From Alphaproteobacteria bacterium MarineAlpha9_Bin6 (GTDB lineage: Bacteria; Pseudomonadota; Alphaproteobacteria; UBA7887): 61,805 nt of DNA. The position numbers and the translations under genes were made by a program. Below the pieces are notes generated by a model. That model had not been told where the DNA came from. It saw only the letters and a list, made by a program, of their open reading frames with translations, and did no database searches. Every line of letters begins with the position of its first letter. The stretch's first letter is position 1. The stretch covers positions 1-61,805 of the forward strand of contig PTKE01000006.1 in the NCBI GenBank assembly GCA_002937585.1, given 5' to 3'. Below, one piece after another: positions 32,467-53,843 of this stretch.

Positions 32467-33030
32467 CTAGTTTACTTCCGATAGACCAACGCGATTTTGC
32501 GCCCACGCAGCCTCATTATGACCAAGCACAATGGGTCTCTCTTTACCATACGAGACGGTGGATATACGGGTAGGGTGAATACCAAGAGAAATCAGGTAAT
32601 TCCGTGCCGCATTAGCACGCCGTTCCCCAAGAGCTAGATTATATTCCCTGGTCCCACGCTCATCACAGTGACCAGCAATGGTAATCACAAGCGCTGGATT
32701 TTGTTTTAAAAACTGGGCCTGTCGGCGAAGCGTCTCCTCACCGTCGGAGCGCACGGAAAATTTATTGAAATCAAAAAACACCCGATCACCGACTTCTTGG
32801 ACCAGCTTGTCCTGCGACGACATGGTCGGCTCAACCGCTGCCACTTCGACCCCACCTGCCCCAACTTCACCACCACCGGCGCCGGCGCCGCCAGCCCCTT
32901 CATGCTCTACGGACCAGACCTCTTTGCCGCCGGCACCTTCACCGGCACCCTCAGCTGATCCATCTGGAGCTGTTTCACAAGCAGCAACAAACAGCAGTAC
33001 GCCACTTAGGGTGAGCAATTTAGACCACAT
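32467..33030 (-). CDS. pal: Peptidoglycan-associated lipoprotein
   Basis: An outer-membrane lipoprotein of 187 residues. The lipobox ends at Cys18 (VAAC). A Gly/Ala/Glu-rich linker spans about 23-67 (with AEGAGEGAGG and GAGGAGAGGG). The OmpA domain has a VFFDFNKFSV strand, GHCDERGT (120-127) and NLALGERRA (131-139), all standard for peptidoglycan binding. Pal holds the outer membrane to the cell wall and is the target of TolB. It ends the tol block; the next gene (cpoB) is 271 bases away. The low-complexity linker is longer than usual. Confidence 0.97.
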   Translation of the reverse strand: MWSKLLTLSGVLLFVAACETAPDGSAEGAGEGAGGKEVWSVEHEGAGGAGAGGGEVGAGGVEVAAVEPTMSSQDKLVQEVGDRVFFDFNKFSVRSDGEETLRRQAQFLKQNPALVITIAGHCDERGTREYNLALGERRANAARNYLISLGIHPTRISTVSYGKERPIVLGHNEAAWAQNRVGLSEVN

Positions 33031-33164
33031 CTAGTCCGACCTCCTCACTATCGCCGCCTCAACAGGATTGTAATTAAATCGTCCGTTAAGGACCAAATCA
33101 TCATTGTAATACAATCGTTTCACAATGAGCCAAACAAACTCTGCCTGATGTTAGTTTGAAAATC

Positions 33165-34544
33165 TTAAGGAATCAAGGGCGACCATGCCGGATCGGAAGC
33201 ATCCATTGGAGTAATTACTTCGCGTTCATTGGTACCCGTTATATCGACACTATAAAGCCTCACATCACCGGCCATGTCATCACTGGGCTGATCCTCGCGG
33301 AAAAACATTAGTACCCGCCCATTTGGCGCCCAAGTTGGGCCTTCCGTTAGGTACCCCTTTGCTATTCGCCGCTCATCACTACCATCGGGGCGCATAACGC
33401 CAATAGAAAAGACGCCTTTATTTATGTTGGTAAATGCTATCCAATCTCCACGCGGTGACCACACCGGCGTCGCATATTTGCCATCACCCCAGCTGATGCG
33501 CTGCTCTTCTCCGCTTGGGTCTGCGTCCATTACGTAAATTTGTTGCTTGTCTGACCGGTCAGATTCGAAGGTGATGTGCTTCCCATCAGGCGAATAGGAT
33601 GGGGCAGTTTCAATTGCTGGATGGTTGGTTAGCTTTTCCACAACGCGCGTGCGGAGGTCCATCACATATATGTCTGAGTTTCCATTGGGCGCCATCGACA
33701 TAATCACCTTATTACCATCCGGTGAAAAGCGAGGTGCAATAGTCATAGTGGGGAAATCACCCAGCACCTCTTGTTTGCCTGTATCGATATTGTAAATATA
33801 GACACGCGGCTTATCGTTGAAATATGACAAATATGTGATCTCTTGTAGAGTTGGTGAAAACCGTGGCGTAAGTGCCATGTGTTTGCCGTCAGTAAGAAAT
33901 CGGTGGTTTGCACCGTCTTGATCCATTAGAGCTAGTCTTTTGACGCGCTTATCTCGTGGCCCCGATTCAGCGACATAAACGATGCGCGTGTCGAAATAAC
34001 CCCCTTCGCCGGTGACACGCTTATAGATTGCGTCAGAAATTAGGTGGGCAATGCGCCGCCAATTTTCTCGCGGAGTTGATAGTGATAACCCCACCAAATG
34101 TTCCCCGGCCAATACATCCCAAAGACGAAACTCAACCCTGACCTGGCCATCAGACTGTAATTGCACTCGACCTACCACTAAAAATTGTGCATTAATTTGG
34201 CGCCAATCAACAAACCTTGGCATAAGTTGCAAGTCTTCCGGGGCTTGCTGAAACGCTCTACGGTCTATTGGTCGGAATTGGCCTGACCGCTCCAAATCAG
34301 CAGTCACAACATCTGCGATAGATATACCCACCTCATCCTCATCAACCCCACCACCATATAACTCTGTGATCGCGATGGGGTAGGGCTCAACGACGCCACG
34401 TGTAATGTCAATTTCGGTTACTGCGTGTGCCAGAAGTGGGTATACGACCACACAAAGCACCGCCATATACATCGCACTCGTAATCAATTGGCGGTCGAAT
34501 CTCCAACATTCCTCGAAAAAGCGCCTGCGGTAAGTTATACGCAT
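33165..34544 (-). CDS. tolB: Tol-Pal system periplasmic protein TolB
   Basis: A 459-residue protein. The N-terminal signal region (hydrophobic around 22-40, ending LLAHA) precedes a D1 domain and a six-bladed beta-propeller with repeated SPDGKHI, RFSPDG and W.ARGD-like blades (for example FSPDGNKVIMS, YSPDGKHITFE, WAPNGRVLMFF). It binds Pal and the N-terminal domain of TolA. The exact signal-peptide start is uncertain because an in-frame ATG at 34472 is also plausible. Its start overlaps the tolA stop (TGATG), which couples translation of the two. Confidence 0.95.
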   Translation of the reverse strand: MRITYRRRFFEECWRFDRQLITSAMYMAVLCVVVYPLLAHAVTEIDITRGVVEPYPIAITELYGGGVDEDEVGISIADVVTADLERSGQFRPIDRRAFQQAPEDLQLMPRFVDWRQINAQFLVVGRVQLQSDGQVRVEFRLWDVLAGEHLVGLSLSTPRENWRRIAHLISDAIYKRVTGEGGYFDTRIVYVAESGPRDKRVKRLALMDQDGANHRFLTDGKHMALTPRFSPTLQEITYLSYFNDKPRVYIYNIDTGKQEVLGDFPTMTIAPRFSPDGNKVIMSMAPNGNSDIYVMDLRTRVVEKLTNHPAIETAPSYSPDGKHITFESDRSDKQQIYVMDADPSGEEQRISWGDGKYATPVWSPRGDWIAFTNINKGVFSIGVMRPDGSDERRIAKGYLTEGPTWAPNGRVLMFFREDQPSDDMAGDVRLYSVDITGTNEREVITPMDASDPAWSPLIP

Positions 34545-35413
34545 CAGCCAAACATTTCCCTTGGATCGAAGTTAATTTTCATATCCCGCCAAAGATGATA
34601 TTTCTCGGGCGAAAGATTTTTGATCTGGTCAGTCTTTAAAACAGCCCGAACCGTGCTTTCTGCCATTGCTCGGTAAAACGGATCAGTCTTCATTTGAACC
34701 TGGTCCACTACCGAAACATCTAACACTGTGCCATCAGGCCCTAATTGGATACGCAGCGTCACCTGCATATTCTGCACATTTCGCCCACCTGCCGGCAAGT
34801 GCCAGTTCTTCTGAATTTGGTAACGGATATTGTCGAGCTCCGTCATACTGAGCGGCGCATCAGGCGTAAATTTACTATCTGCTCTGGCCAGAATTTCCTC
34901 AAACGGGTCTTTGGTGGGCAAAGCAGGTTTGCTTTCTTCAGGTTCATGCTCGGACCTTGCCACTCGGGACACCTCGAGTTCCTCGACGCTCTTGAGAACC
35001 GATGCAAACGGGTCAGGCTTAGACGGCGGATTAGGCTTCTTTATCGGAACCTCTACATCGTCCACCAAACCTACACCCTCAACCTGTTTTTGCAGCTCCT
35101 CTTCCAGCGGGAGCGGGGCGGGCTTTGGCGGAGGCGGCGTCGAGACTGTACGAATCGAATTTCTCGATGACGGAGGTGGAGGCGCTGGTGGCGGGTCTAT
35201 TCCTGGAGCCCTATCTTCCTCTCTCAACTCTTTTTTGGCTTCCAGTTCGGAAGAATGTTCCGGTAGATTTCGCCTTTCATCGACCGTAAAAAGTTCCACT
35301 ACTACAACATGTTCTCCGGACAACTCATCATATTTCAAGTGCGGTAAACCTAAATAAAGTAGTGCGAGAGCAACTCCATGAAAAAGCGCGGACATTATAA
35401 CCGGACCACCCAC
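34544..35413 (-). CDS. tolA: TolA / TonB C-terminal domain protein of the Tol system
   Basis: A 289-residue inner-membrane protein. One N-terminal span (about 8-22), a Pro/Glu/Lys-rich periplasmic arm (residues 60-190, including PPPAPPPPSSRNS) and a C-terminal TonB/TolA domain (about 195-289) with NIRYQIQKNWHLPAGG and VTLRIQLGPDGTVLDVSVVDQ. It bridges the TolQR motor and outer-membrane Pal. It lies three bases after tolR, so it is part of a single unit. Its proline-rich arm differs from the Ala/Lys helical arm of enteric TolA but fits alphaproteobacterial forms. Confidence 0.92.
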   Translation of the reverse strand: MGGPVIMSALFHGVALALLYLGLPHLKYDELSGEHVVVVELFTVDERRNLPEHSSELEAKKELREEDRAPGIDPPPAPPPPSSRNSIRTVSTPPPPKPAPLPLEEELQKQVEGVGLVDDVEVPIKKPNPPSKPDPFASVLKSVEELEVSRVARSEHEPEESKPALPTKDPFEEILARADSKFTPDAPLSMTELDNIRYQIQKNWHLPAGGRNVQNMQVTLRIQLGPDGTVLDVSVVDQVQMKTDPFYRAMAESTVRAVLKTDQIKNLSPEKYHLWRDMKINFDPREMFG

Positions 35414-35416
35414 CTG

Positions 35417-35869
35417 TCACTCCTCCGACTCTATCGTGAACGGCATTTTGGTAATCAATGCAACTTTGCTAAATCCAGCACTGTTGATCGCACTCATGAT
35501 TTCCATGACCAACCCGTAATTGATTTCCTTATCACCACGCAGAAAAATTCTGGTGTCAGGATTTTCACCTGTGATGGCTCGCAATTTCGGAACCAAATCT
35601 GGAAGTACAATTGGGCTCTCCTGCAAGTAGATTTGGCCGGCACTATTTATCGATACAGTCAACGGTTCATCGGTACCCTGTATTACATTGGCTTCCGCAC
35701 TTGGAAGGTCTACTTTGACTCCGACCGTAAGCAACGGGGCCGTAATCATGAACACAACGAGCAATACCAACATTACGTCCACAAACGGCGTTACATTGAT
35801 CTCAGCCATTGGCCGGTAACGATGCTTCAACTGAGTTACAGTGCGACCCCTCACTGGATCTGCCATCAC
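35417..35869 (-). CDS. tolR: Tol-Pal system protein TolR
   Basis: A 150-residue ExbD/TolR protein. The cytoplasmic start leads to MAEINVTPFVDVMLVLLVVFM, with the proton-carrying Asp31 at the membrane edge. The periplasmic domain (about 55-145) has SINSAGQIYLQESPI and the FLRGDKEINYG block. With TolQ it uses the proton gradient to drive TolA. It overlaps tolQ by four bases (ATGA) and precedes tolA by three. Confidence 0.97.
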   Translation of the reverse strand: MMADPVRGRTVTQLKHRYRPMAEINVTPFVDVMLVLLVVFMITAPLLTVGVKVDLPSAEANVIQGTDEPLTVSINSAGQIYLQESPIVLPDLVPKLRAITGENPDTRIFLRGDKEINYGLVMEIMSAINSAGFSKVALITKMPFTIESEE

Positions 35870-36597
35870 ATGGAACCCTCACCCAATTGCCGAGAAAGCA
35901 ACGTCGTGAATTCTCCAGCGAAGCTCTCCAAACGACCCGCGTATCGCCCTAGATCATTCGACAACTTATTGTAGGCAACCACTGCCGGAATAGCCGCCAC
36001 CAAACCGAGCGCAGTCGCAAGTAATGCTTCCGCGATCCCCGGGGCAACCACGGCAAGCGACGTGTTTTTTGTCACAGCGATTGCTTGAAAACTGTTCATG
36101 ATTCCCCAAACCGTGCCAAACAAACCGACGAACGGTGCAGTCGAACCGACAGTGGCCAGAAAGCCAATATGGCGTTCCAGTGACTCCATTTCCCGCGCCA
36201 GGGTAACGTTTATGACCCGGTCAATTCGCCCTTGTAGATTAGAGTGGGCAGTCCCGTCGTGGCTGGTGAATCCGCGTTTGGCTGCATGCGTCCACTCACG
36301 CATCGCGACCACAAACAGAGCTGCTAGCGGATGCTCCGGCGTGCTCCCTACGCGCTCATAAAGTTCCTCTAGCGAGCCACCGGACCAAAACGCTTCCTCA
36401 AACTGTTCGGCCTGTTGGCGCAAACGACGGAAATATCGAATTTTGTTAATAATTATTGCCCAGCACCAAATTGACGACAGCGCCAAAACAATCATTACTA
36501 CCTGTACCACCAGGTCAGCTTGCATAACCAATCCCCAGATTGACAAGTCACCCGAGGACCCCGCTTCTCCCAATGCTACAGACTCAATGGCTGCCAT
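35866..36597 (-). CDS. tolQ: Tol-Pal system protein TolQ
   Basis: A 243-residue MotA/TolQ/ExbB channel. The start is ATG 36597, one base after the ybgC stop; an apparent longer reading to 36741 overlaps ybgC and lacks family sequence. Three membrane spans are seen, and the TM2-TM3 region has GSTAPFVGLFGTVWGIMNSF and the ALLATALGLVAAIPAVVAYN pore helix. With TolR it forms the proton-driven stator at the division site. It follows ybgC in the same unit and overlaps tolR by four bases. Confidence 0.96.
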   Translation of the reverse strand: MAAIESVALGEAGSSGDLSIWGLVMQADLVVQVVMIVLALSSIWCWAIIINKIRYFRRLRQQAEQFEEAFWSGGSLEELYERVGSTPEHPLAALFVVAMREWTHAAKRGFTSHDGTAHSNLQGRIDRVINVTLAREMESLERHIGFLATVGSTAPFVGLFGTVWGIMNSFQAIAVTKNTSLAVVAPGIAEALLATALGLVAAIPAVVAYNKLSNDLGRYAGRLESFAGEFTTLLSRQLGEGSM

Positions 36598-36598
36598 C

Positions 36599-37051
36599 TC
36601 AGCATGCCCCCTGACTGACTTGTAAATAGGTTTCAAGTGCAGAGCGCACTTCCACGGGCAGACGCGCCGGGACACCGGATTGATCCACGCAGGCAATACG
36701 TAGATCCAAACATGCCGTCGCCCCCTTCTTACCCTGCACAATTTGCTTGGTTAGCAAACTGGCGCCGCGAATGCCGCGAATTCTCGTATGTACTTCAAGC
36801 TCATCATCAAGTCGCGCTGGCTTTAGATATTCAATATTGCAAGAACGTACAGCAAACCGCACACCCGACTTTTCAAATAATGTGTTTTGGTCGATTTTCA
36901 CCGAACGCAACATCTCAGTACGCGCACGCTCAGCAAAACGAAAATAGTTAGCATAGTAAACTATGCCGGCTGCATCGGTATCCTCATAATAAACCCGGAT
37001 CGGGAAAATATGCACATTGTCATTCAACGGCTGATACTCGTTAACTGGCAT
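36599..37051 (-). CDS. ybgC: Tol-Pal associated acyl-CoA thioesterase
   Basis: A 150-residue single hot-dog domain. Family sequence begins after [46 protein letters not shown], with the catalytic Asp in [11 protein letters not shown] 37051 with an AGAG just upstream is preferred over upstream starts, which run into ruvB; even so it overlaps ruvB by 11 bases. YbgC proteins hydrolyse acyl-CoA or acyl-ACP thioesters and lie at the head of tol operons, as here. Confidence 0.93.
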
Positions 37052-48094: not shown

Positions 48095-48213
48095 CCCCGC
48101 AAGGTCAAACAGCTATAATTTCGTCAGCCAAGAGCGGACTCGTTGCCAGGAGCAGATCTAATTGTTACGGTCCGCACCTCTCTCCGCGCCATTTTTGAGA
48201 GTTGGTCCAAGCA

Positions 48214-48780
48214 ATGAAGATAAACGGCAACTCCATTCGCCCAGGCATGATTATTGAGCACAAAGGCCAGATTTGGCGTGCGGTCAAATCACAAACTACA
48301 CAGCCAGGAAAGGGTGGTGCTTATAACCAAGTCGAACTTAAAAATCTACGTGATGGCAGCAAGCTCAATGAGCGATTTCGCGCGGCCCAAGACATCGAAC
48401 GCGTGCGACTAGAAGAAAAACCTTACCAATTTCTTTATGCAGACGGAGAGCAACTGACCTTTATGGATACCGAAAATTACGAACAAGTAACTCTAGATCT
48501 TGGCGTTATTGGTCAGGCAAGTACATTTCTACAAGATGGTATGGAAGTCATGATCCAATCTTATGAAGGTGAGGTGCTCGACGCTACGTTACCTGACACG
48601 GTGATACTGTCTGTAGCTGAAACTGAACCGGTAGTTAAAGGTCAAACTGCTACTTCAAGCTTCAAACCTGCCGTCCTCGAAAACGGCCTCCGCACCATGG
48701 TTCCCTCCCATATTGAAAGCGGCACACATATAATTGTGAACACCGTGGATGGTTCATATGCCGAGCGTGCAAAAAATTAA
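48214..48780 (+). CDS. efp: Translation elongation factor P
   Basis: An 188-residue protein from ATG 48214. A TTG at 48202 is in frame but family sequence starts MKINGNSIRPGMIIEHKG. Lys33, in TTQPGKGGAYN, is the residue modified to beta-lysyl-lysine in many bacteria. The three beta-barrel domains are complete, ending in a VNTVDGSYAER region. It relieves ribosome stalling at polyproline. No epmA or epmB gene is in the window, so modification cannot be judged. Confidence 0.97.
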   Translation: MKINGNSIRPGMIIEHKGQIWRAVKSQTTQPGKGGAYNQVELKNLRDGSKLNERFRAAQDIERVRLEEKPYQFLYADGEQLTFMDTENYEQVTLDLGVIGQASTFLQDGMEVMIQSYEGEVLDATLPDTVILSVAETEPVVKGQTATSSFKPAVLENGLRTMVPSHIESGTHIIVNTVDGSYAERAKN

Positions 48781-48807: not shown

Positions 48808-49611
48808 ATGGCTATCCGCTCAGCCGAGATTAACGTCATGGTGACTTGTGCCACTAAAGTTGCACGAGCTTTAACTCGTGACTTTGGCGAAATAGAACAG
48901 CTTCAGACAAGCCGTGCCGGCAGCGCGGAATTTACAGAGCGTGCATTTAATTACGGCACATCGGTTTTAAAAGAAATCCTAGCTAAAGCACGCCCTGACC
49001 GAGACGTGTTGTTGGCGGGCGTCACCAACCCGTTATTGGACAAAACTAGCGAATTGTGGATAGCGAACCCGATATGCGGGCGAGCTAATTTCTCCCATGG
49101 AATTCGTCATTTCGCAGTCACGGTCGCCCACGTGCGGGAGCAAGAAACCCTGGCCACAGTCATTTATGATTCGGTGCACGATGATCTTTATTGGGCGGAG
49201 AAAGGTATCGGAGCCTACAAGAATGACCGCCGCATTCGTGTCTCTGAACGTCGTCGGGTTGAAGACATGATGATTGGTAACTACGAAGTGACTGATAATG
49301 ACCCATGTGTGCATCAGGCTCGAAGCACTCTAGCCCAACACACAGATGGTGTACGAGTGCTTGGGTCCATCGCTCTGGATTTAGCTTACGTAGCAGCTGG
49401 CTGCCTCGACGGCTTTTGGAGTTTATCTGCAGTGCCGTCTGATTGCGCAAGCGGAACACTGCTAGTGCAAGAAGCAGGTGGCTTTGCTAGCGGGATGTCA
49501 GGCACCAGCAAACCCACAGAAGGCACCGGCATTCTAGCAGCCAACGGCCGTTTACACGCCATGCTTGGAGCCTTGCTGCGCCAAGCCCAGTCTCCGCCGT
49601 CGGGTAGATAA
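48808..49611 (+). CDS. Inositol monophosphatase-like protein with degenerate active site
   Basis: A 267-residue protein of the IMPase/SuhB fold. Fold landmarks are kept (ARALTRDFGEIEQL, LDLAYVAAGCLDGFW, LLVQEAGG), but the active site is not. The family's WIxDPLDGTxNF reads WIANPICGRANF: aspartates become Asn87 and Cys90 and the threonine Arg92. The preceding Glu-Glu metal pair is absent (LLAGVTN), and WDxAAG reads PSDCASG, leaving only Asp212. The frame is intact and codon use normal, so this is a probable pseudoenzyme or a new activity rather than a decayed gene. It lies 27 bases after efp. Confidence 0.88.
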   Translation: MAIRSAEINVMVTCATKVARALTRDFGEIEQLQTSRAGSAEFTERAFNYGTSVLKEILAKARPDRDVLLAGVTNPLLDKTSELWIANPICGRANFSHGIRHFAVTVAHVREQETLATVIYDSVHDDLYWAEKGIGAYKNDRRIRVSERRRVEDMMIGNYEVTDNDPCVHQARSTLAQHTDGVRVLGSIALDLAYVAAGCLDGFWSLSAVPSDCASGTLLVQEAGGFASGMSGTSKPTEGTGILAANGRLHAMLGALLRQAQSPPSGR

Positions 49612-49727: not shown

Positions 49728-50756
49728 ATGCGCATAGCGGTGCGCACAATCGAACACGGGTCGCAAGGCACGCATTGCTTTGGCGCTTCTTGGTTCATAG
49801 CCTTGATCTTTGCAGCATACTTGCTCACCGACACTGGCGCTCTAGCACAACAAACCGTACAAATTGGGCCACGGGCACCGGCGGTTGAGATAAATGAAGA
49901 CGCCGTATATTATTACGTACCAGTCCGTCGGAAGAGTGATAAACCTCTTCCTTTGTTTAATCCCACTAAAGACAGTTTGGAATCGCGAATAGTTGACCTC
50001 AATTCGCTCGACCGTTCGCGGCCGTTGAGCCCCTCTGTCAGGGAGCCTTCAGCATCCGAACGAGATAAAACACCGAACTCACGTGTAGTTGAATTACCGC
50101 CTATCCGCCGGTCATCGGCAGAATCGATGGCAACAGTAATTAATGCCATTGCCTCAGAAGATCGAACCCCCAAGGCTACAGCTTACCAAGAAGATTCACT
50201 AGCCGCTGAGGCCAACAGTTCGCCGCCAGTAAAAACTCCTGAGGAATTAGAGCTACCAACGGTGGCCGTGACTGAGATACTGCCGGACCCATCGTCTTCA
50301 AGCGTTGAAAATGCAGAGGCGCCCGTCCCGGCTCCACCACCCGAACTTCAACCAACGCCAGGTGAGCGAGATCAAACCAAGTTGGCTGCCATCGCACCCG
50401 CAGCACCGCAGGGTCAATCTGAAGCGACACCTTTGCCTTCTATTTCAACAGATCAGATGACAGTGTTATTTAATAGTGGTGACAGTACGATCGAAGACAG
50501 CAACGAGGCAACTTTGCGATCTATTGCCGCCCAGATCAACGCAGAAGAACGGACACGCTTGCAACTAAGAGCATATGCGAGCGCCCAGAATAGTTCAGCC
50601 AGCGCCGCGCGGCGACTATCTCTTTCCCGTGCGCTGGCTGTTAGATCTTTTCTGATAGAGTCTGGTGTCAATTCAACTCGCATCGACGTCCGAGCTCTTG
50701 GCGCAAAGAGCGAGTCGGGACCAGCAGACCGCGTTGATTTGGTCGTTATAAATTAG
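49728..50756 (+). CDS. OmpA-domain envelope protein
   Basis: A 342-residue secreted protein from ATG 49728, which has GGAG nine bases upstream; an in-frame start at 49623 adds unlikely sequence. The signal peptide (hydrophobic about 20-38, GALA-QQ cleavage) leads to a long Pro/Ser/Glu-rich linker and a C-terminal OmpA-like domain (about 245-342). The domain keeps LSLSRALAVRSFLIESGV but lacks the usual GHTD block (it has RAYAS), so classical peptidoglycan binding is uncertain. It is the first of four same-strand envelope genes with the MotA-like and MotB-like proteins 60 bases downstream. Confidence 0.82.
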   Translation: MRIAVRTIEHGSQGTHCFGASWFIALIFAAYLLTDTGALAQQTVQIGPRAPAVEINEDAVYYYVPVRRKSDKPLPLFNPTKDSLESRIVDLNSLDRSRPLSPSVREPSASERDKTPNSRVVELPPIRRSSAESMATVINAIASEDRTPKATAYQEDSLAAEANSSPPVKTPEELELPTVAVTEILPDPSSSSVENAEAPVPAPPPELQPTPGERDQTKLAAIAPAAPQGQSEATPLPSISTDQMTVLFNSGDSTIEDSNEATLRSIAAQINAEERTRLQLRAYASAQNSSASAARRLSLSRALAVRSFLIESGVNSTRIDVRALGAKSESGPADRVDLVVIN

Positions 50757-50816
50757 TTGTCGTCCGGGTCGCGTGGGGAGAACGTAAGGTTGTGAGCCAG
50801 TCGCTAAATCCAACCG

Positions 50817-51917
50817 ATGAATAAGCCAAGTCGCTTCACCGCTCGTATGGTGGTTTTTTTAGCACTCGCCGCTGGAGTGGTAGTGTTGCTATCCGGGCCT
50901 CTACTTGAAGCGTTCCGAGCCAATCCGCCCCTTAATGGACTAATACTTGGTGTCCTGCTGATCGGGATAATTTATTGTTTCCGACAAGTCGTCCAACTGG
51001 CCCCCGAGGTTCGATGGATTGAGACCTTCCGCACCAACCAACCGGGCCTATCGACACAAACAGCTCCAAAATTATTGTCTCCCACTGCGCGTCTGCTCGC
51101 TGGCCGCAAGGGTAGCAAGGTCATGCTGTCGGCAATAGCCATGCGTTCCTTGCTTGACGGCATTAGTGCACGATTAGATGAATCTCGTGATATTTCGCGC
51201 TATTTAATCGGATTACTAATTTTCCTTGGTCTACTTGGCACTTTCTGGGGATTACTCGAGACGGTCAGCTCGGTGGGGCAAGTCATCAGTAACCTGTCTG
51301 TAGCCAACGATGATATCGTTCACACCTTTACTAAGCTCAAGGAAGGGCTTGCAGACCCTCTAAACGGCATGGGAACTGCGTTTTCATCTTCGCTTTTCGG
51401 CTTAGCTGGAGCGCTGGTGCTCGGTTTTCTCGATCTTCAAGCCAGCCAAGCACAGAACCAGTTCTATAATGACCTAGAAGAGTGGCTTTCTGGTATTACT
51501 CGTCTTGGAACCGGCGCCGGCCTAGGCGATGGCGAACAGTCAGTTCCCGCGTACGTTCAAGCCCTACTTGAACAGACGGCCGAAAGTCTGGCAAACCTAC
51601 AAACCACGCTCTCACGCAGCGAAGACGACAGGCGGACTACGACCTCTAGCATTCTCCAATTGACAGAACGATTGGCGACCCTTGGTGACCAAATGCAAAG
51701 GACGGACGGCAGCGTTGATGAGGCGACGCGCGGCCACATCCGTAACCTCGATGTTCATTTGGTGCGTTTACTCGAAGAAACTGTAAACGGCCGAAATCAA
51801 ATGGTTTCGGAACTGCGGAATGAAATCAAATTACTGGCGCGGACAGTGGCCGCCACAGCTAATCTACCCACGAAAGTGGCTCGTGAGGAGCTCCTTCGAA
51901 CTGACTCGATCAAATGA
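50817..51917 (+). CDS. MotA/ExbB-like proton-channel protein with coiled-coil tail
   Basis: A 366-residue inner-membrane protein. Four membrane spans are seen at about 11-30, 40-58, 129-150 and 188-207. The third contains GLLIFLGLLGTFWGLLETV, the typical pore-helix pattern of MotA/TolQ/ExbB channels, and the fourth GTAFSSSLFGLAGALVLGFLDL. The remaining 150 residues (about 215-350) are a cytoplasmic coiled coil. It should pair with the MotB-like gene 44 bases downstream to form a proton-driven stator. It is clearly distinct from the TolQ gene in this window. Name from domain, role inferred. Confidence 0.85.
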   Translation: MNKPSRFTARMVVFLALAAGVVVLLSGPLLEAFRANPPLNGLILGVLLIGIIYCFRQVVQLAPEVRWIETFRTNQPGLSTQTAPKLLSPTARLLAGRKGSKVMLSAIAMRSLLDGISARLDESRDISRYLIGLLIFLGLLGTFWGLLETVSSVGQVISNLSVANDDIVHTFTKLKEGLADPLNGMGTAFSSSLFGLAGALVLGFLDLQASQAQNQFYNDLEEWLSGITRLGTGAGLGDGEQSVPAYVQALLEQTAESLANLQTTLSRSEDDRRTTTSSILQLTERLATLGDQMQRTDGSVDEATRGHIRNLDVHLVRLLEETVNGRNQMVSELRNEIKLLARTVAATANLPTKVAREELLRTDSIK

Positions 51918-51961
51918 TGTTGCTTAAGTAAGTCGACACAACCAAGCTCCACCTTCTGCTC

Positions 51962-53113
51962 ATGCTCACTCGCAAAAGCCGCTCTAGGCAAGGTCCAGAC
52001 ATTTGGCCTGGTTTTGTAGATGCCATCTCTACACTGCTTTTGGTTTTGATTTTTCTATTGGTAGTTTTCATCCTATCCGAGTTTTTTCTATCACGCGCTC
52101 TGTCCGGCCGCGACGAAGCTTTAAGTCGTTTAAATCAGCAGGTCTTTGAGCTAGCTGATTTGCTGGCACTCGAAGAGTTAACAAATGAAGAACTCCGCGC
52201 AAATATCGCGGATCTGGGGTTGCAGCTTCAGACTTCAACGAAGGATCGCGAAGAACTTAATAGACAATTGTTTTTGGCCCTTGAACAACAAGACAATCTC
52301 GGAGGAGATATTGCCTCCCTGCAACGTCTCAATGAAGTAAGCGATGCAGAGCGCAAGGATTTAGACCTCCGATTGGCAGCAGCGTTAGCGGCACTTAAAG
52401 CGGAAGAGGCTGCACTTCTTGCGTCCCGCGACGAAACGGCCACCAGTCGGTCTGCGCTAGTCGAACAGACAAAGCTGTCCACAGTCGCGCAACGTCAGGT
52501 CACACTATTAAATCAACAAATAGCGGCTCTCCGCATCCAATTAAATTCCATCCAGGCTGCACTCGATGCAACAGAAGCAGACGTAACTAAGAAAAACGTC
52601 CAGATCGTTGATCTAGGTCGACGACTCAACGTCGCGCTCGCCCAAAAGGTTGGCGAATTGTCTCGATACCGTTCTGAATTTTTTGGCCGACTCCGTGCGT
52701 CTCTCTCTAGACGGAGTGCCGTTAGTATAGAGGGCGATCGATTCGTGATACAATCGGGTGTTTTGTTCGGAAGCGCCTCAGCGCGCCTTGACCCTGCTGG
52801 AGAAGCACAACTAAACGACTTGGCGCAACTCTTACTCGATATATCAGCAGATATTCCTAAGGATATTCGATGGGTGTTGCGTATTGATGGTCACACCGAT
52901 ACGCGTCCCATTAACACCCCACAATTTCCCTCTAATTGGGAGCTGTCGGTTGCCCGCGCAATTTCCGTAGTACGCTATTTGGTCGACCGAGGCGTATCTC
53001 CACACCGATTAATGGCGGCGGGATTTGGTGAGTTCCAGCCTCTAGTCGACCGAGACAGCGACGATGCTTATAAATCTAATCGCCGCATAGAACTTAAATT
53101 GACAGAACGTTGA
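51962..53113 (+). CDS. MotB-like stator protein with OmpA peptidoglycan-binding domain
   Basis: A 383-residue protein. A short cytoplasmic start leads to one membrane span (about 21-45) with Asp20 in WPGFVDAISTLLLVLIFLL at the membrane edge, equivalent to the proton-carrying Asp of MotB/TolR. Then comes a long coiled coil (about 50-240) and an intact OmpA domain (about 255-383) with GHTDTRPI, NWELSVARAISVVRYL, GFGEFQP and NRRIELKL. This is the layout of a stator that crosses the membrane and grips the cell wall. It follows the channel gene directly and precedes the fourth gene by four bases. Confidence 0.87.
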   Translation: MLTRKSRSRQGPDIWPGFVDAISTLLLVLIFLLVVFILSEFFLSRALSGRDEALSRLNQQVFELADLLALEELTNEELRANIADLGLQLQTSTKDREELNRQLFLALEQQDNLGGDIASLQRLNEVSDAERKDLDLRLAAALAALKAEEAALLASRDETATSRSALVEQTKLSTVAQRQVTLLNQQIAALRIQLNSIQAALDATEADVTKKNVQIVDLGRRLNVALAQKVGELSRYRSEFFGRLRASLSRRSAVSIEGDRFVIQSGVLFGSASARLDPAGEAQLNDLAQLLLDISADIPKDIRWVLRIDGHTDTRPINTPQFPSNWELSVARAISVVRYLVDRGVSPHRLMAAGFGEFQPLVDRDSDDAYKSNRRIELKLTER

Positions 53114-53117
53114 ATTA

Positions 53118-53843
53118 ATGACCAACACCCAGGAAACAGCCAACGAAACAGGCGAGCGCCAGAAATTTCGTTGGAGGCAACACAAAAACAAGCTTAGGAT
53201 TGTGCTTTGGCTAACAATGTCTGCAGTTCTAGCCTATTGGGCGTATTCATTAGCATACGACAGATTTAGCCAATTGAACCATGAACTTCAGTCCAAATTG
53301 GACCAGGTTCAAACGAAAAATAACACCCTGCGCGCCGATGCAGCCAAAGCTGAAGCCCGCGCTAATATCCTTCAGCAAAAATATGCAGCGGACGCACCAT
53401 ATGGTGCGACGAGACAAATCATGGCTTTGGTAAAAGAACGGTTAGAAAGTGGGGTTAGCCCAGACCGGGTCGCTTTTCTGGTGGCGATGGCCGAAAATGA
53501 TACTGAGTGCGAGTACAACACTGACACGCGGAGATTTCTTGTACAAACCTCTCTCACTACTGGCGCCAACTCTGCGATAAGCTTCTCCAATGATACGATC
53601 ACGGTTACTGGTTGGGGACTCCCATCCAGAGATGTAAACGATAATTTACAATCTTGGTTTGACGCTGCACAAAAAATCAAAATACTGTTTACGCTAATAG
53701 GCGGGAAGGAATACCGAGCAGATGGAAAGCTGCCATTGCATCATACAATGGTGACCGGCAACATCGAGCACCGATTCACAATTAAAACAAGCGAGGCTAA
53801 GGGCTTCGTTGTAGTAACCGAACAACGCTGTCGCTTTCCGTAG
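53118..53843 (+). CDS. Single-pass coiled-coil envelope protein of unknown function
   Basis: A 241-residue protein. A charged cytoplasmic start is followed by one membrane span (about 28-50), a coiled coil (about 55-95, LNHELQSKLDQVQTKNNTLRADAAKAEAR) and a C-terminal soluble part with beta-strand character (SAISFSNDTITVTGWG, IEHRFTIKTSEAKGFVVVTEQRC). Two cysteines, in the domain (ECEYN) and near the C-terminus (RCRFP), could form a disulfide if periplasmic. No family is recognised. Its four-base spacing from the MotB-like gene marks it as part of that unit, perhaps an accessory of the stator. Confidence 0.8.
   Translation: MTNTQETANETGERQKFRWRQHKNKLRIVLWLTMSAVLAYWAYSLAYDRFSQLNHELQSKLDQVQTKNNTLRADAAKAEARANILQQKYAADAPYGATRQIMALVKERLESGVSPDRVAFLVAMAENDTECEYNTDTRRFLVQTSLTTGANSAISFSNDTITVTGWGLPSRDVNDNLQSWFDAAQKIKILFTLIGGKEYRADGKLPLHHTMVTGNIEHRFTIKTSEAKGFVVVTEQRCRFP

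What the first reader, a model, noticed from the sequence alone, without database searches (positions are those of the whole stretch)
49728..53843. Four-gene envelope cluster resembling a proton-driven stator
Seen directly: a signal-peptide OmpA-domain protein, a four-span MotA/ExbB-like channel with a 150-residue coiled-coil tail, a MotB-like protein (membrane-edge Asp20, long coiled coil, intact OmpA domain) and an unrecognised single-pass coiled-coil protein, all on one strand with gaps of 60, 44 and 4 bases. Known: MotA/MotB, TolQ/TolR and ExbB/ExbD pairs use proton flow to move or tension the envelope. Here a separate, complete tolQRAB-pal set exists in the same window and no flagellar genes are present. 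Inference: this is a distinct envelope machine spanning inner membrane, cell wall and perhaps outer membrane, with unknown output; the fourth protein may be specific to it.
Basis: partly seen in the sequence, partly recalled or inferred. Interest (0 to 1): 0.66.

Follow-up and report, generated by a model that had tools for sequence, protein, structure and literature searches.

The report
Conserved cell-wall-anchored motor related to Zorya
Three of these four genes encode an uncharacterised ion-driven motor anchored to the cell wall that is kept in most alphaproteobacteria checked and is most closely related to the motor of the Zorya anti-phage system, while the fourth gene is a separate envelope protein linked to it only in this bacterial family.

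Summary
The four genes exist as described. P0002 is a four-helix MotA/TolQ/ExbB-type channel. P0003 is a MotB-type partner with an invariant membrane Asp20, a long helical spacer and an intact peptidoglycan-binding OmpA domain. The pair is a distinct non-flagellar stator: the genome (98.6% complete) has no FliF and has its own tolQRAB-pal. In a channel tree it groups with ZorA (Zorya defence), not with TolQ/ExbB or MotA. It does not look like a defence system: relatives of P0003 occur in 247 of 385 alphaproteobacterial genomes, the P0002 and P0003 genes are adjacent in 74/74 testable loci, and both usually sit behind efp-IMPase. P0001 belongs to the unit (59/70 loci) as a secreted proline-rich protein whose OmpA-like domain has lost the peptidoglycan-binding Asp. 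The fourth gene is not specific to the machine: its family occurs in 70/385 genomes, unlinked from the stator in every neighbourhood examined outside the window's family, and some of those genomes lack the stator. NCBIfam already holds P0003's family (PRK09039) without a function; I found no study of the system. Most likely it is a housekeeping motor that uses ion flow to act on or sense the cell wall; the output is unknown.

The parts
49728..50756 (+). P0001: secreted protein with a proline-rich linker and a C-terminal OmpA-like domain (PG-binding Asp lost); third member of the conserved unit
   Evidence: PF00691 E 5e-13; ortholog upstream of the channel gene in 59 of 70 loci with room; GHTD replaced by AYAS, the SxxRA Arg kept
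50817..51917 (+). P0002 (called STA here): four-helix ion-channel subunit of MotA/TolQ/ExbB type with a C-terminal coiled-coil tail
   Evidence: PF01618 above cut-off; AF2 model matches only ExbB/TolQ/ZorA/PomA-type chains among its best 50 PDB matches; conserved LGLLGTFWGL and GMGTAFSSSLFGL motifs
51962..53113 (+). P0003 (called STB here): MotB-like subunit with one TM helix and Asp20, a helical spacer of about 220 residues and an intact OmpA domain
   Evidence: NCBIfam PRK09039.1-2 413.6 bits, cut-off 305; Asp20, the GHTD Asp313 and the SxxRA Arg332 invariant in all ungapped rows
53118..53843 (+). P0004: single-pass coiled-coil protein with a beta-rich C-terminal domain and two invariant Cys; linked to the stator only in this family
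   Evidence: A3 alignment of 28 relatives; AF2 pLDDT 87.5 with no convincing PDB fold match; unlinked elsewhere
48202..48780 (+). efp (elongation factor P), conserved upstream neighbour, not part of the machine
   Evidence: Pfam EFP domains; within 6 kb upstream of the channel gene in 50 of 61 loci with room
48808..49611 (+). inositol-monophosphatase-family gene, conserved upstream neighbour; catalytic residues lost in the window's family
   Evidence: PF00459; upstream in 53 of 61 loci; motif loss

Best explanation
P0002 and P0003 form an ion-driven rotary motor of the 5:2 kind: five P0002 subunits around a dimer of P0003 membrane helices, with Asp20 carrying the ion. P0003 is tied to peptidoglycan by its OmpA domains at the end of a long helical spacer. 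The motor is a housekeeping device of the alphaproteobacterial envelope, inherited with its neighbours, that uses ion flow to act on or read the state of the cell wall, with P0001 as a secreted accessory on the periplasmic side. Its channel is closest to that of the Zorya motor. P0004 is an independent envelope protein recruited next to the motor in this one family. Shown: gene content, conservation, synteny, ancestry, invariant functional residues. Inferred: 5:2 assembly, ion flow, rotation, wall binding in vivo. Guessed: the output.
For: Invariant Asp20 and intact PG-binding residues in P0003; channel motifs and stator-superfamily fold matches for P0002; channel gene followed directly by the B gene in 74/74 loci and preceded by P0001 in 59/70; relatives of P0003 in 247/385 class genomes, 212/314 of the good-quality ones; neighbours efp 50/61 and IMPase 53/61; STA and EFP distances correlate as well as EFP and IMPase do (Mantel r 0.49 and 0.48, every one of 999 permutations lower); no FliF; a separate Tol-Pal; purifying selection; a tree clade with ZorA to the exclusion of TolQ/ExbB, bootstrap 95.
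Against: No complex was modelled, so 5:2 assembly and Asp20 in the pore rest on homology. TM-scores of the monomer model are low (at best about 0.57 to the target). The system is absent from about a third of good-quality class genomes and gave no hit in Caulobacter, so it is not essential to all. P0001 is missing from some groups: in the one locus read closely (L245) efp-IMPase-STA-STB stays without it, and the gammaproteobacterial copies show only the pair. Nothing shows what the motor moves.
Confidence: 0.75

Rival explanations
1. It is a diverged Zorya-type anti-phage system: the motor senses envelope breach on infection and passes a signal to a cytoplasmic effector through the P0002 tail.
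For: ZorA and ZorB are the closest named families to the channel (PADLOC ZorA1 E 1.3e-15) and among the close ones for the B subunit (ZorB3 E 2e-25); bootstrap 95 clade with ZorA; both carry OmpA-type B subunits and an A-subunit coiled-coil tail.
Against: Scores only about 55 bits against ZorA models, where true ZorA3 proteins score 815-1226; no ZorC/D/E or any other PADLOC hit in ten neighbouring genes; class-wide, single, syntenic presence with housekeeping genes, whereas ZorA1 was seen in 3 of 399 phylum genomes.
Confidence: 0.1
2. It is a force transducer to the outer membrane, working like TolQRA-Pal or ExbBD-TonB, with P0001 as the moving or docking part.
For: P0001 is secreted, conserved at its mature N-terminus, with a long proline-rich linker and an OmpA-like domain, and is co-located in most loci.
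Against: P0001 has no lipobox and lacks the PG-binding Asp; the B subunit is OmpA-type, not TolR/ExbD-type; P0001 is absent in some groups that keep the pair.
Confidence: 0.15
3. It is a four-gene machine in which P0004 is a specific essential subunit.
For: Four-base gap to P0003 and purifying selection in the family (dN/dS about 0.12); 62 of 70 P0004-positive genomes also carry the stator.
Against: 0 of 67 independent stator loci have it next door; the stator exists in most genomes without it; eight P0004-positive genomes lack the stator, five of them at least 93% complete; two same-family genomes have the stator with no P0004 next to it. Co-occurrence is confounded by shared ancestry.
Confidence: 0.05

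Closest known systems
ZorAB of Zorya anti-phage systems (PMC11890865)
   Same: MotA-type channel with a C-terminal coiled-coil tail, MotB-type partner with a PG-binding OmpA domain; same clade in the channel tree
   Different: Weak score against ZorA models, shorter tail (about 141 residues against several hundred), much longer periplasmic spacer in the B subunit, no ZorC/D/E nearby, class-wide syntenic presence instead of patchy presence
NCBIfam PRK09039 'peptidoglycan-binding protein' (NF006543)
   Same: P0003 is a member, above the curated cut-off
   Different: The family is named only by its domain; its channel partner, P0001 and the conserved locus are not described in anything I found
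MotAB/PomAB flagellar stators
   Same: Channel fold, membrane Asp, PG-binding OmpA domain in the B subunit
   Different: No FliF in the genome; a separate lineage in the tree
TolQR-TolA and ExbBD-TonB
   Same: Channel fold and the LG-x-x-GT-x-x-G motif
   Different: B subunit is OmpA-type, not PF02472; own tolQRAB-pal elsewhere in the window; TolQ/ExbB form their own clade (bootstrap 95-98)

Membership tests
NCBIfam PRK09039 (NF006543) for P0003 | Score above the curated cut-off | tested here: met
   413.6 bits against 305
MotA/TolQ/ExbB proton channel superfamily for P0002 | PF01618 above gathering score and matching fold | tested here: met
   24.4 bits against 22.9; the best 50 PDB fold matches are all members of this superfamily, though none reaches E 0.001
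5:2 ion-driven stators | Membrane Asp at the start of the B-subunit helix | tested here: met
   Asp20 in 38 of 38 ungapped rows
5:2 ion-driven stators | Five A and two B subunits, ion flow, rotation | not testable with these tools
   Only single chains can be modelled here
Flagellar stator (MotAB) | Flagellar genes in the same genome | tested here: not met
   No FliF/YscJ match in a 98.6% complete genome
Flagellar stator (MotAB) | Channel groups with MotA | tested here: not met
   Separate clade
TolQR/ExbBD | B subunit of ExbD/TolR type (PF02472) | tested here: not met
   P0003 hits OmpA and not PF02472; the window's TolR does hit PF02472
Zorya (ZorAB) | Full-length score against ZorA models | tested here: not met
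   55 bits over residues 124-337, against 815-1226 for true ZorA3
Zorya (ZorAB) | ZorC/D or ZorE effector genes beside it | tested here: not met
   No PADLOC hit in ten neighbouring genes
Zorya (ZorAB) | PG-binding OmpA domain on the B subunit | tested here: met
   PF00691 with GHTD and SxxRA intact
Zorya (ZorAB) | Anti-phage activity | not testable with these tools
   Needs phage challenge
PG-binding OmpA domain for P0001 | Asp of the GHTD motif | tested here: not met
   AYAS in the window; GHTD not kept in any of the 28 relatives aligned

The most novel reading that the evidence does not exclude
A class-wide housekeeping motor of alphaproteobacteria is the nearest living relative of the Zorya defence motor, and shows what ZorAB did before it became a phage sensor: a wall-anchored, ion-driven device that monitors or works on the peptidoglycan.
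Probability: 0.25. Interest if true: 0.7.

Novelty: new variant of a known kind. Interest (0 to 1): 0.5.

Why it matters
Ion-driven 5:2 motors have a short list of known jobs. A further lineage, kept with its partner genes in about two thirds of the good-quality alphaproteobacterial genomes sampled and unstudied as far as I could find, points to an envelope function that has been missed. A recent survey (PMC12505986) reports that non-flagellar B subunits other than Zorya carry a compact PG-binding fold without OmpA homology; this lineage is non-flagellar and carries a full OmpA domain. Its kinship with ZorAB makes the origin of Zorya testable in cultured bacteria such as Azospirillum, Acetobacter or Magnetospirillum relatives, in which the genes were found.

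Tried and rejected
Flagellar, Tol and Ton motors were rejected by gene content, B-subunit type and tree position. Zorya defence was rejected as a filing but kept as nearest kin. P0004's distant neighbourhoods gave no functional clue: an LptD gene precedes it in one group of genomes, otherwise the neighbours vary. Its AF2 model found no convincing PDB fold (best probability 0.77, TM at most 0.27). A profile of P0002 against PDB sequences matched only unrelated coiled coils, so structure was needed. A promoter/terminator scan gave nothing above chance for promoters and only a mild excess of terminator-like sites. Literature searches for PRK09039, for this gene order and for non-flagellar MotB-like proteins found no study of the system. 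The STB part of the Mantel test failed on gapped rows. Greedy ORF calling misread several GC-rich loci and was replaced by an all-ORF search.

Full report
The observation. P0001 carries a recognisable OmpA domain, P0002 a weak but above-cut-off MotA/TolQ/ExbB domain, and P0003 a strong OmpA domain. P0003 also passes the curated cut-off of NCBIfam PRK09039.1-2, a family named only 'peptidoglycan-binding protein'. P0004 matches nothing curated above cut-off. The genes are under purifying selection: dN/dS about 0.04, 0.06 and 0.12 for P0002, P0003 and P0004 against a same-genus genome, with dS near saturation so the values are rough.

Not Tol, not flagellar. tolQ, tolR, tolA, tolB and pal lie at 32467-36741 on the - strand, with a TPR gene after them, and are separate proteins. 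A search of the whole genome (98.6% complete) found no FliF/YscJ family member, while the same search found it in E. coli, B. subtilis, Caulobacter and Thermotoga. The genome holds four MotA/ExbB-type channels in all: TolQ, an ExbB-like one, P0002 and one more.

Conservation and synteny. A homology search of 60 relatives gave loci from many families; reading 38 fetched neighbourhoods besides the window's own showed the order efp, IMPase, P0001, P0002, P0003 in most. An independent collection gave 80 loci: P0003 follows P0002 in 74 of 74 with room, P0001 precedes in 59 of 70, efp lies upstream in 50 of 61 and the IMPase in 53 of 61. This collection was searched with conserved stretches of P0002, so it measures linkage, not prevalence. 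Prevalence comes from whole genomes: P0003's family in 247 of 385 class genomes, 212 of 314 of the good-quality ones, and in none of 14 named controls including Caulobacter. Pairwise distances of P0002 and EFP correlate (Mantel r 0.49) as well as EFP and IMPase do (0.48), above all 999 permutations, as expected if they were inherited together.

Key residues. Asp20 in the motif WPGFVDAL is present in all 38 ungapped rows; Asp313 of GHTD and Arg332 of SxxRA, the residues that bind diaminopimelate in OmpA-type domains (own knowledge), are in all 39. P0003's spacer between helix and OmpA domain is 221 residues in the window and 141-564 in relatives; its two ends are conserved and the middle varies. 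A straight helix of that length would exceed a typical periplasm (own knowledge), so it is probably folded back or slanted; this is inference. P0001 has a cleavable-looking signal without a lipobox, a short conserved motif at the mature N-terminus, a proline-rich linker of very variable length, and an OmpA-like domain that has AYAS where GHTD should be; GHTD is not kept in any of the 28 relatives aligned, while the Arg is.

Ancestry. P0002 scores best among named families against ZorA of Zorya. Searching 399 phylum genomes with its profile gave 88 class hits, six strong hits outside the class and 13 weaker ones (E 1e-11 to 1e-15) outside it, with two intermediate or unclear ones among the rest; five of the weak ones were checked and are true ZorA3 proteins. 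In a tree of channel domains the P0002 family is one clade (bootstrap 95-96), joins ZorA in a clade with bootstrap 95, and stays apart from TolQ/ExbB (95-98) and MotA. The order within the ZorA clade is weakly resolved, and ZorA2 was not sampled. The AF2 model's best PDB matches are ExbB, ZorA, TolQ and PomA chains, with modest TM-scores.

The fourth gene. Its family, recognised by a helix, a coiled coil and a confident beta-rich domain with two invariant cysteines, is in 70 of 385 class genomes. Outside the window's family it lies elsewhere in the genome, with no constant neighbour and is beside none of 67 independent stator loci. Eight P0004-positive genomes have no detectable P0003, five of them at least 93% complete. 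Two same-family genomes have the FAD gene directly after P0003. So P0004 is not a defining part of the machine. Its domain has no convincing fold match in the PDB.

Mechanism. By homology, five P0002 and two P0003 chains make a channel whose ion carrier is Asp20; P0003 holds on to peptidoglycan. The output is undecided. The P0002 tail varies from 65 to 210 residues in the alphaproteobacterial set and one gammaproteobacterial copy is only 267 residues long in all, while the wall-binding residues never vary, so I favour an output on the periplasmic, cell-wall side over one through the cytoplasmic tail. That preference is inference. No work on this unit was found in the open library.

Verdict. 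It is a new variant of a known kind of machine.

Noticed in passing
window 48808-49611: The inositol-monophosphatase-family gene upstream of the unit has lost the metal-binding acidic motifs (WIANPICGRANF for WIVDPLDGTTNF, PSDCASG for PWDxAAG). Four same-family loci (L037, L038, L039, L041) are degenerate too, while 20 loci of other families keep the motifs nearly intact. It looks like a family-specific pseudoenzyme; three other members of PF00459 exist in the genome.
   Followed up: partly
L004:714-2289 (own genome, contig C98): A further MotA/ExbB-type channel (295 aa, PF01618) is followed by a 234-aa protein with an Asp before its membrane helix and no family match: possibly another unusual stator pair.
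   Followed up: partly
L109, L125, L131, L132, L134, L137: In one group of genomes the P0004 relative lies just after an LptD-family gene, directly or with one 632-637-aa gene between them.
   Followed up: no
L041:8875-10179 and L245:5856-7157: The unit's context varies at its edges: in L245 a 259-aa membrane protein stands where P0001 would be, between the IMPase and P0002 genes.
   Followed up: no
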